Virus record (IMG/VR): IMGVR_UViG_3300009156_000421
Location: 1 to 34,028 of that record
Source of the DNA: a virus
Length of the DNA stretch: 34,028 bases
Strand: one strand, 5' to 3'
Part shown: in pieces, positions 2,842 through 23,868 of the stretch
Layout of the letters: every line of letters starts with the position of its first letter
Position numbering within the stretch: the stretch's first letter is position 1
Made by a program: the position numbers and the translations under genes
Notes under the pieces: model-generated
What the model saw: only the letters and a program-made list of their open reading frames with translations
What the model was told of the DNA's origin: nothing
The model's database searches: none

Positions 2842-2909
2842 CCTGGCGGCGATGGTATCCTCGTCGCCCGGTACGCGGCGGCCGACGGTGGCGCCGCTGG
2901 CGTGGGTAG
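2838..2909 (+). CDS. 23-residue Arg/Trp-rich peptide
   Basis: ATG 2838 overlaps the preceding stop (ATGA). The peptide is almost only Arg, Trp, Pro and Gly (MTWRRWYPRRPVRGGRRWRR, then WRG). Such composition could bind nucleic acid or disturb membranes, as Arg/Trp-rich antimicrobial peptides do. It is very short, so a chance frame cannot be excluded; the unbroken ATGA chain is the main support. Confidence 0.4.
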   Translation: MTWRRWYPRRPVRGGRRWRRWRG

Positions 2910-2937
2910 AAACTCCGCACGACTTGGAGGTACTCCG

Positions 2938-3627
2938 ATGAAGAAGTGGCTGGGCATCCTCGCGCTCGCGCTCCTGCCGCACGTCGCGCTCGCCGCGCCC
3001 GCGATCCTCTCGTTCGACAATCCGACCGTGGACGGCGGCACCGTCACCTATGACGGCGCGGGCGGGGCGCTGTCGGCCGCCAACGTGATCTTCCAGCAAG
3101 TCATCGGCGTGGACACGCCCGCGAATGCCGGGGCCTCGCTGTTCTGCTATCCCGTGCCCTGCCTGCTCAACTTCACCACCGGAGACAACCTGACCGAAGG
3201 CCCGCCGGCCTACACGTTCGCGGGCGGCGGCGATCTCACGCTGACGGGCGGGCTCAACACCGCGCCCGATGGCAGCGGGGCGCAAATCTCGCCAGCGGGC
3301 ACGCTGCTCGCGCACAGTGGCGTCTTCGCGGATCCCTCGCTGGTGCTCGGCGGCGGCGGCACCTCGATGCTCTTCATCGGCGTGGGCGAGGATGCGAAGG
3401 ACGTGACGCTGACGGACTATTACGGCGTGACGGGCTTCGGGTTCGCGTTCGCGAATACGGAGCTCTCACTCGCGAACGCGGTCTTTGATCCGACCACGGC
3501 GGCGTTCACGGCGACCGTGACCGATGCGGACTTCGCGAACACGGCGGTGCCCGAGCCGGGCACGTTGCTGTTGCTCGGCACCGGCCTCCTGGCCGCCGTG
3601 CCGCTGGCGCGGCGCGTTCGGCGGTAG
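2938..3627 (+). CDS. PEP-CTERM sorting-domain protein
   Basis: A 229-residue secreted protein. ATG 2938 is chosen because GGAGG (2926-2930) precedes it by 7 nt and a signal peptide begins there (MKKWLGILALALLPHVALA, likely cleavage near residue 20). The middle is rich in Gly, Thr and Asp and beta-type. The end is a textbook PEP-CTERM signal: V-P-E-P-G at 204-208, a hydrophobic helix (TLLLLGTGLLAAV) and an Arg-rich tail. In bacteria this signal is recognised by exosortase EpsH/XrtA for sorting to the surface, often with exopolysaccharide. Its presence in a phage-like region is odd; it implies an exosortase-bearing host and a possible role in changing the surface of the infected cell or lysogen. 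Confidence 0.85.
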   Translation: MKKWLGILALALLPHVALAAPAILSFDNPTVDGGTVTYDGAGGALSAANVIFQQVIGVDTPANAGASLFCYPVPCLLNFTTGDNLTEGPPAYTFAGGGDLTLTGGLNTAPDGSGAQISPAGTLLAHSGVFADPSLVLGGGGTSMLFIGVGEDAKDVTLTDYYGVTGFGFAFANTELSLANAVFDPTTAAFTATVTDADFANTAVPEPGTLLLLGTGLLAAVPLARRVRR

Positions 3628-6562: not shown

Positions 6563-7027
6563 ATGGGTCCACGGGCGAACTTTGAATGCGCCCACTGCAC
6601 CGACGTGGAATTCGGGCCCGAGCCGACCCAGATCGTCGTCTACGAGGATCTCCCGCTCAAGAGCGTGCGGTGCCCGGTGTGCAGCTGGAAGAAGGGTTTC
6701 CGGCGGCGATTTGATGCCATCCAAGTCTCCACCACCGGGCACCGCATCGCGAAGATCCTCGATCCGATGATGGAGCCCCAGATCAATCAGGCGTCGATGA
6801 TGAAAGACGACGCCAAGCGGAGCGAGCGGCAACTGGCCGAGGATCACGCCCGCGCCATCGAGATCCTGCCCGAGCCCCAGCGCCCGGCGATGCGGGAGGC
6901 GCTCCACGGCGGGCCGTCGAAGTGGGTGCCGGCGAAAACGGTCGGGATCTCGCCCCAGGCGGCCTATGACTCGCGGATGCACATCTGGCCGCACATCAAC
7001 CGCCGCATCGTGCCGACGCGGGCCTGA
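6563..7027 (+). CDS. zinc-ribbon protein between terminase and portal
   Basis: A 154-residue protein. The N-terminal domain has two CxxC knuckles, C9-AH-C12 and C37-PV-C40, a zinc ribbon that resembles FmdB-like regulators. The rest is helical with a basic stretch (KRSERQLAEDHARAIE) and a tail that mentions an HTH-like SPQAAYDSRMHIW. It starts after a TAGACT box and overlaps the portal start (TGATG). The position suggests a packaging accessory, possibly acting with TerL at the portal, but this is inference. Confidence 0.68.
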   Translation: MGPRANFECAHCTDVEFGPEPTQIVVYEDLPLKSVRCPVCSWKKGFRRRFDAIQVSTTGHRIAKILDPMMEPQINQASMMKDDAKRSERQLAEDHARAIEILPEPQRPAMREALHGGPSKWVPAKTVGISPQAAYDSRMHIWPHINRRIVPTRA

Positions 7028-8766
7028 TGGCCCCGAAGTCGTCCGCCTACGAGACCCGGCGGCGCATCGATGAGGCCCGCGAGCTCCTGCACGTCTACAT
7101 CACGCGCGCCGGCATCTCGCGCGAACAGCGGCGCGTGCAGGGGTCGAATCTGCGCCAGTGGTACGAGGCGGGCACGGAGGACGGCTACTCGGCCCGCTAC
7201 AACAAGTTGCGGGCGCATCTGGACCGGCTCTCCTCGTACATCTGGTCCCCCGACAGCGTCCGGTTCGGCGTGCATCTGCCGCCGGCCACGCGGAAGGACT
7301 GGCTCGATCCGGCCCAGACGGCGCGGGACGAGTTCCGCCAGGTCTGGGCGAACAGCGGCGCCGATCTCTCGGTGAGTCTCGCGCTCGAGTGGGCGCTGGT
7401 CTACGGCGCGAGCCCGCTCAAGATTCAACAGGATCCCCAGAAGGGCTTCGTCATCACCGCGATCGATCCGTGGGATTTCGGCGTGACCCGCGAGGATCAG
7501 CCGTCCCTCACCGATCAGGACGTGTACTGCCACTGGTACTCCTTGTCGATGCCGCAGTTCGAGCGGTGGGTGCAGGGCCATCCCCGCGAAGAGGAGATGA
7601 TTACCAAGGCGGCTCGGCTCGCGTCCCCGCACGCCGGGGGCTCCGGGTACACGCGGCTCGTCATCTCGGGGCTCACGGGCCCCTTTCCGAACTCGGTCGT
7701 CTCGGGCGCGATGCCGGGCGACGTGAACGACTCGACGTACTTGCTCGAGGCGAACGTGATCGAGCCGGTCGTCTTGCTCTGCGATGTCTGGGAGCGCCGC
7801 GCGTACCACGACACGCTCGCGGGGCCCTACGAGGACTGGCGGGTGACGACGGTGCTCCACGACGGCACCGAGCCCCTCATCCGGCGCCGGAACCCGATCT
7901 TGCCGTGGATGAAGACGCCGACGGGCCAGGTCTTCCCCGGGCAGGCCCCGTTCGGGATCCTCACGCCCCGGCCGATGCCGAACTACCTCTGGGGCCGCTC
8001 CGAGCTCGCGAGCCTCCTGATGCTCCAGCAATGGCGCGAGCGCCACGTCCGCTCGATGGACGAGGTCGTGCAGCGGCAGCTGGACCCGTCGAAGCTCTTC
8101 ATCGGTCTCAGCGACTTTGAAGAGGCGGGCCGGGCGCTCTCGAACGTCGGCGGCAGCTACGGCACGGGCGATCCGAACGTGAAGTTCGAGACGATCAAGG
8201 TGGAAGTCGGCCAGGAAGCGTTCGCCATGATCGGCCAGATCGACCAGATGTTCGATGATCAGAGCGGGATTCCGCCGACGCTCCAGGGCCAACAGACGCC
8301 CGGCGTCCGGTCGAACGATCAGCTGATCTCGATGGCGGGCATCGGCGCCGGCCGCATCCGGCACATGGCCCTCCAACTCGAGAGCGTGCTCTCCCACATG
8401 GCGACGTTGGGGTTCCGCATTCTCCAGCACGCGGACGACCAGACCTACGAATCGCCGCAGGGCCAGCGGTTCATCCTGGCCCAGCTGCCGTCGGGTCTGA
8501 CGCTCCAGGTGTCCGCGCACTCGTCCTCGCCGATCTTCTCGGAACAGACGCAGATGAAGGCGCTGGAACTCTTCAAGGCGGGCGCGATCGACGGCGAGTG
8601 GCTCATCGAACTGATGGACCCGCCGCACCGCGAGGAGATGAAAGAGACCTCGCGGCGGCTCGCGGAAGGCCGTGCCGAGAACCAGAAGCAGCTGATGATG
8701 CTGGCGGCGGCGCGGATCGAGCGCAAGGCGCAACGGCTCGGGCCGGGGCGGCCGGTGGGGAGCTAG
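7027..8766 (+). CDS. portal protein
   Basis: A 579-residue protein placed right after the terminase and before the scaffold and capsid genes, with portal size and features: an N-terminal helical region (RNKLRAHLDRL-like), a hydrophobic clip-type core (LALEWALVYGASPLKI), a long helix region and a DQSGIPPTLQGQQTPGVRSN loop, then a helix-rich C-terminus (EEMKETSRRLAEGRAENQ). The portal forms the twelve-subunit ring at the capsid vertex through which DNA is packed and ejected. ATG 7027 overlaps the upstream stop. The family is assigned from context and general layout rather than one signature motif. Confidence 0.75.
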   Translation: MAPKSSAYETRRRIDEARELLHVYITRAGISREQRRVQGSNLRQWYEAGTEDGYSARYNKLRAHLDRLSSYIWSPDSVRFGVHLPPATRKDWLDPAQTARDEFRQVWANSGADLSVSLALEWALVYGASPLKIQQDPQKGFVITAIDPWDFGVTREDQPSLTDQDVYCHWYSLSMPQFERWVQGHPREEEMITKAARLASPHAGGSGYTRLVISGLTGPFPNSVVSGAMPGDVNDSTYLLEANVIEPVVLLCDVWERRAYHDTLAGPYEDWRVTTVLHDGTEPLIRRRNPILPWMKTPTGQVFPGQAPFGILTPRPMPNYLWGRSELASLLMLQQWRERHVRSMDEVVQRQLDPSKLFIGLSDFEEAGRALSNVGGSYGTGDPNVKFETIKVEVGQEAFAMIGQIDQMFDDQSGIPPTLQGQQTPGVRSNDQLISMAGIGAGRIRHMALQLESVLSHMATLGFRILQHADDQTYESPQGQRFILAQLPSGLTLQVSAHSSSPIFSEQTQMKALELFKAGAIDGEWLIELMDPPHREEMKETSRRLAEGRAENQKQLMMLAAARIERKAQRLGPGRPVGS

Positions 8767-8770
8767 CGCG

Positions 8771-8989
8771 ATGCCCATCACGCAGGCCGACCTCCACAAC
8801 TGGTTCACCTACCACCCGCCCACCGAGGAGCAAGCGGGCCGCTACGGGGAGATCCGCGAGGCCGCGATGGACTTCGCGTTGGTCATCCTCACGAACACGC
8901 CGCCGTCGGCGGATCAGACCGCCGCGATCCGCAAGATTCGGGAAGCGGTAATGACGGCCAATGCCGCCATCGCCTGTGAGGGCCGATGA
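8771..8989 (+). CDS. Acb2-like anti-CBASS cyclic-nucleotide sponge candidate
   Basis: A 72-residue protein whose pattern closely matches the Acb2/Tad1 hairpin family as I remember it: N-terminal FTYHPP followed by Q-x-x-RY-x-x-IR, a helix ending A-x-x-F-A-x-x-I, a P-P-S turn, and a C-terminal helix ending E-A-V-M-x-A-NAAIA. Family members in Pseudomonas phages and T4 (Vs.4) bind cyclic oligonucleotides that activate CBASS, and some also block Thoeris. Shine-Dalgarno GGGGAG lies just upstream and the stop overlaps the next ATG. Placement between portal and scaffold genes fits early-acting cargo carried in a late operon. One oddity: the usual tryptophan before ANAAIA is threonine here. Function remains to be tested. 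Confidence 0.72.
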   Translation: MPITQADLHNWFTYHPPTEEQAGRYGEIREAAMDFALVILTNTPPSADQTAAIRKIREAVMTANAAIACEGR

Positions 8990-9129: not shown

Positions 9130-9282
9130 ATGTACGTCATCCTCATCGTGGTCTTGGTGCTCCTGCTCGCGGGCGTCTTTCCGACGTGGCCGCATAGTGC
9201 GTCGTGGGGCTACGGCCCGAGCGGGCTCGTCGGGGTCATCCTCATCGTGCTGCTGATTCTGTTCCTCACAGGGAGGCTCTGA
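9130..9282 (+). CDS. DUF3309-like small membrane protein
   Basis: A 50-residue protein with two hydrophobic segments (VILIVVLVLLLAGVFP and LVGVILIVLLILFL) around the polar loop TWPHSASWGYGPSG. That loop and the LP/FPTWP-x-S-x-x-WGYGPSG pattern are the signature of DUF3309, small membrane proteins common in proteobacteria, of unknown function. AGGAGG upstream (9116-9121) serves as ribosome site. The phage copy may affect the host membrane; its stop overlaps the next ATG. Confidence 0.75.
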   Translation: MYVILIVVLVLLLAGVFPTWPHSASWGYGPSGLVGVILIVLLILFLTGRL

Positions 9283-22943: not shown

Positions 22944-23378
22944 GTGTCGAACCTTTCAAATTACCTAGAGAACCGCCTCGTCGATCACATACTCCGCGCC
23001 ACGGCCTATCCCGTGCCGACGGCGATCTATGTGGGGCTCTTCACGACGCCGTCGAGTGACGCCGGGCCCGGCACTGAAGTGAGCGGGGGCGGCTATGCGC
23101 GAGTGCAAGTGGGCCCCGGTCTCGCATCATGGGCCGCGACGCAGGGGGGCACGGCGGGGGCCAGTTCGGGCACGACCGGCCAGTCATCGAACGTCGCCGA
23201 CATCACGTTTCCGGCGCCATCCGCGAACTGGGGAACGATCACGCATTTCGGATTGTTCGACGCAGTGACCGGAGGGAACCTGTTGATGCAGACGGCGCTC
23301 GCGGTAGCTAAGATCGTGAACAGTGGTGATCAAGCACCAAAATTTCCTGCGGCAGGCCTCACAGTTACTTTGGACTAA
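22944..23378 (+). CDS. Gp80-like tail-associated protein
   Basis: A 144-residue beta-rich protein. The N-terminus SNYLENRLVDHILR, then PTAIYVGLFTT, an EVSGGGYARV turn and a C-terminus with WGTITHFGLFD and FPAAGLTVTLD match the Gp80-like phage tail-fibre protein family. GTG 22944 is chosen since the protein then begins MSNLSNYLENR. The HNH endonuclease gene starts 4 nt after its stop, and the C-terminus appears intact, so the insertion did not break it. Confidence 0.72.
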   Translation: MSNLSNYLENRLVDHILRATAYPVPTAIYVGLFTTPSSDAGPGTEVSGGGYARVQVGPGLASWAATQGGTAGASSGTTGQSSNVADITFPAPSANWGTITHFGLFDAVTGGNLLMQTALAVAKIVNSGDQAPKFPAAGLTVTLD

Positions 23379-23382
23379 CACC

Positions 23383-23868
23383 ATGCCGAACATTCTCGGC
23401 AACACCCACACTGACGAGGCCAAAGAAAAGATGGCGGCGGCGTCGGTGCTTCGGTGGAAGAAGCCAGAGCAACATGAGCAACAGGCTGCACTGCGGCGTG
23501 GGTACAAACACTCCGCTGAGACCAAGGCGAAGATGTCGGCCACGTTTCTGCGGAAGATGGCCGACGATCCCGCCTACGCCGCGATGCGCCGAGAGAATGC
23601 GCGGCGCAACAGTCTCAGGGCCCGCCAGCGATTCCTCGCCACGCTGGCGGGCACCAATCTGGTACTCGCGGACATTCCCCTGAGCAAGGAAGAGAAGAAG
23701 ATGCTCCGGGCGTTTCACTGTGCGATCTGCCGCACGCTGGATCGTCCGAGGCAGCTGGCGCACATCGTGGCGCGGTCGCACGGTGGCCCGCAACGGCACA
23801 CCTGGGGCAACACGATCCCGCTCTGCGCCCCCTGTCACGCCGCCGTGGATCACGGCAAGGTGATCTGA
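23383..23868 (+). CDS. NUMOD3-HNH homing endonuclease
   Basis: A 161-residue protein. Two NUMOD3-like DNA-binding repeats (HTDEAKEKMAAAS and YKHSAETKAKMSATF) precede an HNH nuclease domain of about 50 residues with CAIC, the AHIVARSHGG catalytic histidine segment, an N in GNTIPL and CAPCHAAVDH. Free-standing HNH genes of this kind spread by cutting allele-free copies and are typical invaders of phage gene clusters. Start ATG 23383 is chosen over the in-frame GTG 23323, which would overlap the previous gene. Local AT content is raised at its 5' edge (about 23330-23400). Confidence 0.82.
   Translation: MPNILGNTHTDEAKEKMAAASVLRWKKPEQHEQQAALRRGYKHSAETKAKMSATFLRKMADDPAYAAMRRENARRNSLRARQRFLATLAGTNLVLADIPLSKEEKKMLRAFHCAICRTLDRPRQLAHIVARSHGGPQRHTWGNTIPLCAPCHAAVDHGKVI

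What the first reader, a model, noticed from the sequence alone, without database searches (positions are those of the whole stretch)
8771..8989. Acb2-like anti-CBASS candidate in the head-gene operon
Sequence shows the FTYHPP, Q-x-x-RY, P-P-S and C-terminal ANAAIA pattern of the Acb2/Tad1 hairpin family, in a 72-residue protein with a good Shine-Dalgarno. Known members sequester cyclic oligonucleotides of CBASS and Thoeris. It is placed between portal and scaffold, with a basic peptide and a DUF3309-like membrane protein, which could be a small counter-defence cluster. Threonine replaces the usual tryptophan before the ANAAIA tail, so ligand choice may differ.
Basis: partly seen in the sequence, partly recalled or inferred. 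Interest (0 to 1): 0.85.

Follow-up and report, generated by a model that had tools for sequence, protein, structure and literature searches.

The report
Compact Acb2-type phage nucleotide sponge
A small gene in an uncultured phage encodes a short form of the Acb2/Tad1 "sponge" proteins, which phages use to soak up bacterial alarm molecules; it belongs to a large, mostly soil-phage branch with a changed binding end that apparently nobody has tested.

Summary
The ORF at 8771-8989 (+) is real: 72 aa, Shine-Dalgarno GGGGAG, under purifying selection in relatives. It belongs to the Acb2/Tad1 hairpin family: Pfam PF24729, 54 bits against a 27-bit cut-off. The proven sponges T4 Vs.4 and PaP2 p26 hit the same model at 65-71 bits. 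AlphaFold2 gives a short helix plus a two-helix hairpin (pLDDT 92.9). Best explanation: an oligomeric sponge that sequesters cyclic-oligonucleotide alarm signals; binding itself is inferred.

(1) Threonine at the tryptophan position is the fixed state of a branch (64 of 64 relatives), not a quirk. More telling, the basic residue at position 65 (R79 in T4, which contacts cGAMP; Arg in PaP2 and Tad1; Lys in solved "Acb2 homolog 43") is Ala here.
(2) The "counter-defence cluster" is not supported. In two close relatives the portal is followed directly by the basic-peptide gene without acb2, and one of these keeps DUF3309. The other carries acb2 between terminase and the next gene. Acb2 is an independent, relocating accessory gene.

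The family is known and other phage genomes already carry annotated members. This is a new member of a known kind; the open question is which ligand the branch prefers.

The parts
8771..8989 (+). acb2-like gene, 72 aa, Acb2/Tad1 hairpin family (PF24729)
8758..8763 (+). Shine-Dalgarno-like GGGGAG, 8 nt before the ATG, overlapping the end of the portal gene
   Evidence: sequence
8804..8821 (+). codons for F12-T-Y14-H-P-P17: N-terminal part of the presumed ligand pocket; Y14 corresponds to T4 Y8 / PaP2 Y11 (T4 Y8 stacks on cGAMP)
   Evidence: register; T4 residues from PMC10097602
8855..8857 (+). codon for R29, invariant in the branch; corresponds to T4 K23 / PaP2 K26
8954..8974 (+). codons for T62-A-N-A65-A-I-A68: branch signature at the C-terminal side of the pocket; T62 = T4 W76, A65 = T4 R79, A68 = T4 F82
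7027..8766 (+). portal protein gene (weak SU10-type portal match); directly followed by the 43-aa basic gene, without acb2, in relatives L089 and L090
8986..9117 (+). 43-aa basic peptide gene; conserved after the portal in relatives that lack acb2 there, so a neighbour and not a partner
9130..9282 (+). DUF3309 membrane peptide (PF11752); present in L089 without acb2 beside it; neighbour only

Best explanation
The gene encodes a compact Acb2-type sponge. During infection the 72-aa protein folds as a short N-terminal helix plus a helical hairpin and assembles, probably as a hexamer, with ligand pockets between protomers that bind host cyclic-oligonucleotide alarm signals without cutting them. 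This keeps CBASS (and perhaps other nucleotide-signalling defence) effectors inactive. The gene is an independent accessory gene that has been inserted into the head-gene operon and uses its transcription. Shown here: family membership, predicted monomer fold, conserved N-terminal pocket residues and oligomer-interface positions, purifying selection, presence/absence and relocation between close relatives. Inferred: oligomer, ligand binding, anti-CBASS activity, use of the operon's transcription, and which ligand.
For: PF24729 54 bits vs cut-off 27; T4 Vs.4 71 bits; PaP2 p26, the protein of the Acb2 crystal structures 8h2j/8h2x, 65 bits. A family profile containing this protein reaches PDB 9ptq 'Acb2 homolog 43' (E 2.8e-8), T4 Vs.4 (E 0.0019) and, weakly, Tad1 (E 0.05). 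Structure: helices 5-11, 22-42, 47-68, pLDDT 92.9; the best viral fold matches are mostly named Acb2/Tad1 hairpin proteins. Kept relative to T4: Y8->Y14, K23->R29, hexamer interface A66->A52, A73->A59, A77->A63, L29->F35 (T4 residues from PMC10097602). dN/dS-type ratios 0.06-0.31 in the pairs where it could be estimated. Accessory behaviour: empty site in L089 and L090, second site in L090; diverse neighbours in other phages.
Against: No binding data. The narrow branch profile alone does not reach solved Acb2 or Tad1; the link runs through intermediates and Pfam. Foldseek against PDB finds no Acb2 or Tad1 structure with this model, while a T4 control model finds both T4 and PaP2; this hairpin is about 10-12 residues shorter per helix. 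T4 residues R79 and F82, which contact cGAMP, are Ala here (F82 is also Ala in PaP2), and H11 is Pro.
Confidence: 0.74

Rival explanations
1. It is a sponge, but tuned to a signal other than the classical CBASS dinucleotides (for example a cyclic trinucleotide, a Thoeris ADP-ribose signal or an undescribed one), because the C-terminal half of the dinucleotide pocket is rebuilt.
For: A65 replaces the basic residue found in T4 (R79), PaP2 (R85), Tad1 (R) and 9ptq (K); T62, N64, R57 and D48 are invariant in 64 of 64 relatives. N64 is shared with Tad1.
Against: Y14 and R29 are kept; PaP2 has Ala at the T62 and A68 positions and still binds cGAMP; other residues could take over the role of R79.
Confidence: 0.2
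2. A hairpin protein that lost ligand binding and serves another role, for example a small morphogenesis factor in the head operon.
For: Position directly after the portal, also in Gordonia phages ChisanaKitsune and FlyingTortilla; Foldseek misses Acb2 structures.
Against: Absent after the portal in L089 and L090, elsewhere in L090, and in unrelated contexts in most relatives, including a cluster of small genes in Tunturi_1 and neighbourhoods of tRNA or toxin-antitoxin genes; pocket and interface positions conserved.
Confidence: 0.05
3. A chance ORF or a chance resemblance.
For: The protein is only 72 aa, and high G+C gives many long spurious frames.
Against: Pfam well above cut-off, 142 confirmed relatives in viral contigs, purifying selection, good SD.
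Confidence: 0.01

Closest known systems
Acb2 (T4 Vs.4, PDB 7uq2; PaP2/PaMx33-type p26, PDB 8h2j, 8h2x, 8ixz)
   Same: Same Pfam family over the full model; short N-terminal segment plus antiparallel helical hairpin; Y14 and R29 match T4 Y8/K23; small residues of the hexamer interface kept
   Different: 72 aa instead of 88-93; hairpin helices of 21-22 residues against 32-33 in the T4 model; T4 R79, F82, H11 and W76 replaced by A65, A68, P17 and T62
PDB 9ptq, 'Acb2 homolog 43' (76 aa)
   Same: Compact hairpin of the same length class; profile match E 2.8e-8 over almost the whole protein
   Different: Lys at position 65 and Phe at position 62 where this branch has Ala and Thr; no paper on it was found, so its ligand is not known to me
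Tad1 (PDB 7uav, 8smd, 8kbb-8kbh)
   Same: Shares the second hairpin helix motif; N64 and M61 match Tad1 ...ALMWMNR
   Different: Tad1 has an N-terminal beta domain that is absent here (123-138 aa in solved chains); only a stretch of about 21 residues aligns, E about 0.05
phrog_1454 (phage family without assigned function)
   Same: E 4.6e-18 over residues 4-70; this branch's PHROG
   Different: PHROGs v4 assigns no function

Membership tests
Acb2/Tad1 hairpin family (Pfam PF24729) | Profile match above the curated cut-off over the full model | tested here: met
   54 bits vs 27, model positions 1-58; proven Acb2s score 65-71 bits
Acb2/Tad1 hairpin family (Pfam PF24729) | Two antiparallel helices forming a hairpin | tested here: met
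   Predicted helices 22-42 and 47-68, pLDDT 92.9; best BFVD matches are mostly Acb2/Tad1 hairpin proteins
Acb2 | Fold match to solved Acb2 structures | tested here: inconclusive
   No Acb2 or Tad1 hit for this model; T4 control model finds 7uq2 and 8h2x. The short hairpin limits the method; sequence profile A4 reaches 9ptq and 7uq2
Acb2 | Cyclic-dinucleotide contact residues (T4 Y8, H11, K23, R79, F82) | tested here: inconclusive
   Y8->Y14 and K23->R29 kept; H11->P17, R79->A65, F82->A68 not kept (residues from PMC10097602). PaP2 Acb2 also lacks H11 and F82
Acb2 | Homohexamer | not testable with these tools
   Interface positions A66, A73, A77, L29 of T4 map to A52, A59, A63, F35; no oligomer was modelled
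Acb2 | Binds and releases cyclic oligonucleotides, blocks CBASS | not testable with these tools
   needs biochemistry and plaque assays
Tad1 | N-terminal beta domain before the hairpin | tested here: not met
   72 residues, no strand in the model
Counter-defence gene cluster (acb2 + basic peptide + DUF3309) | The genes stay together in relatives | tested here: not met
   L089: basic peptide and DUF3309 without acb2; L090: acb2 at another place, basic peptide stays

The most novel reading that the evidence does not exclude
The branch with T62/N64/A65/A68 (142 confirmed relatives of this protein in viral contigs; all 64 aligned carry T62) is a separate class of compact sponges whose rebuilt pocket captures a nucleotide alarm signal not bound by known Acb2, pointing to a defence signal used by the hosts of these environmental phages.
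Probability: 0.15. Interest if true: 0.65.

Novelty: new member of a known kind. Interest (0 to 1): 0.34.

Why it matters
Acb2-type sponges show which alarm signals a phage meets. This branch is common in uncultured environmental phages and has kept one changed pocket signature across 64 relatives, so one binding screen would tell which signals matter there. Within one phage group the gene is present after the portal, present after the terminase, or absent from both sites, which makes its status as a portable accessory gene directly visible.

Tried and rejected
phmmer of the protein alone, and the narrow branch profile, against PDB: no sponge hit. hhalign of the branch against T4-type Acb2: probability 2%; the broader set A4 gives 79.5%. 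Foldseek against PDB: no Acb2 or Tad1, with a T4 positive control that works. PADLOC and NCBIfam: nothing for this protein. DNA megablast of the head region against named phages: no match. Tree test of whether the window's acb2 and that of L090 (same contig as L020) are sisters: not resolved (p-AU 0.606, 73 columns), so one move or two acquisitions cannot be told apart. Counter-defence cluster: rejected. A structural role as main function: judged unlikely because acb2 is dispensable at this site in relatives. Host and host CBASS: not determined; no tRNA genes in the window.

Full report
Observation. GGGGAG lies 8 nt before the ATG; the gene starts 4 nt after the portal stop codon and overlaps the start of the next gene by 4 nt. 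Pfam PF24729 (Acb2/Tad1 hairpin) matches with 54 bits against a cut-off of 27, over the whole model. A profile of relatives made without this protein scores it 128.8 bits; the next best frame of the window scores 3.3. PHROGs gives phrog_1454, without a function.

Is the family call meaningful? Two sponges with published structures and binding served as controls: T4 Vs.4 (71 bits) and PaP2 p26 (65 bits; matches the chains of PDB 8h2j/8h2x). Both hit the same model; 14 ordinary control genomes do not. The protein alone, or its narrow branch, does not reach a solved sponge. A wider profile that includes it and phage intermediates does: 9ptq "Acb2 homolog 43" E 2.8e-8, T4 Vs.4 E 0.0019, several Tad1 chains E about 0.05. 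hhalign of that wider set with the T4-type set gives 79.5%, against 2% for the narrow branch.

Fold. AlphaFold2 with 64 sequences gives helices 5-11, 22-42 and 47-68, mean pLDDT 92.9. Foldseek against PDB finds no sponge, although a T4 control model finds T4 (E 3.3e-9) and PaP2 (probability 1.00 at 22-24% identity). The T4 model has helices of 33 and 32 residues against 21 and 22 here, so the compact hairpin is a real difference and also makes the comparison weak. Against predicted viral proteins, seven of the best eight matches are named Acb2/Tad1 hairpin proteins.

Residues. T4 Vs.4 stacks cGAMP with Y8 and F82 and contacts it with Y8, H11, K23 and R79; mutations at L29, A66, A73 and A77 hit the hexamer interface (PMC10097602). 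Alignment (register also from Pfam) maps Y8->Y14, K23->R29, H11->P17, W76->T62, R79->A65, F82->A68, and the interface to F35, A52, A59, A63. Invariant in all 64 aligned sequences: F12, R29, D48, R57, T62, A63, N64, I67, A68. PaP2 has Ala at both the T62 and A68 positions, so neither Trp nor Phe is needed for a working sponge. The basic residue at position 65 is Arg in T4, PaP2 and Tad1 and Lys in 9ptq, but Ala here and in at least 90% of the branch. Inference: one pocket half and the oligomer core are kept and the other half is rebuilt, so a changed ligand preference is possible but not shown.

Surroundings. Three viral contigs (L086-L088) carry the same phage, 99.96-99.98% identical over the aligned stretches. 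Two close relatives give a natural comparison. L089 (portal 91%): terminase - 154-aa gene - portal - basic peptide - DUF3309, with no acb2 in the 5.8 kb held. L090 (portal 89%, capsid 92%; same contig as L020): portal - basic peptide with no acb2 between, but an acb2 66% identical between terminase and the 154-aa gene. More distant relatives L171 and L172 (portal 42-48%) and L091-L094 show no acb2 in the held stretches. Immediate neighbours of acb2 in other phages form only small groups of similar proteins and hit many different PHROGs. So acb2 is an accessory gene that comes, goes and moves; the basic peptide and DUF3309 are not its partners. Whether the window and L090 copies descend from one insertion is not resolved. 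The gene also follows the portal in Gordonia phages, so such junctions in head operons are used more than once. dN/dS-type ratios of 0.06-0.31 show selection on the protein.

Mechanism. Shown: family, predicted monomer fold, conserved positions, selection, mobility. Inferred from the characterised family (PMC10097602, PMC12043709, PMC12657218): hexamer, sequestration without cleavage, block of CBASS effectors. Not known: host, host defence, and ligand.

Novelty. Acb2-like genes are already annotated in named phages from similar evidence (Microbacterium phage Statler, PMC13348362; mycobacteriophages Xandras and BigBubba, PMC11953737), and a compact homolog has a solved structure (9ptq). The finding is a well-supported new member of a known kind. 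What is worth testing is the ligand of the T62/A65 branch and the relocation in one phage group.

Noticed in passing
window 2902-3627 (+): A protein with a PEP-CTERM sorting signal (PF07589, 26.3 bits, cut-off 20.7) inside the phage genome; present at 100% in the same-virus contigs L086-L088, not found in relative L090. An exosortase-type signal in a phage is unusual and hints at the host group.
   Followed up: partly
window 23323-23868 (+): NUMOD3-HNH homing-endonuclease-like gene.
   Followed up: no
L090 7691-10131: About 2.4 kb of DNA after the basic peptide gene, with two large frames (445 and 388 aa), where the window has DUF3309.
   Followed up: no
L084 5001-5204 (cyanophage S-2L, MW334946, 35199-35402): An Acb2/Tad1 hairpin ORF (67 bits) that is not annotated in the record, just before the tail assembly gene.
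   Followed up: partly
L149 and other Brevibacillus/Paenibacillus phage records: Acb2/Tad1 hairpin-like proteins labelled 'putative phosphomannomutase' in Jenst, SecTim467, Vegas, PBL1c and Likha: probably a spread annotation error.
   Followed up: no
L141 (G006:C193:12077-12232) and L148 (phage ScoobyDoobyDoo): Hairpin domains inside longer open frames (360 and 148 aa): possible fusions of the sponge hairpin to other domains, or just long frames.
   Followed up: no
L083 and L158, Gordonia phages: Acb2-like gene directly after the portal and followed by genes annotated as RNA ligase and ADP-ribosyltransferase.
   Followed up: no
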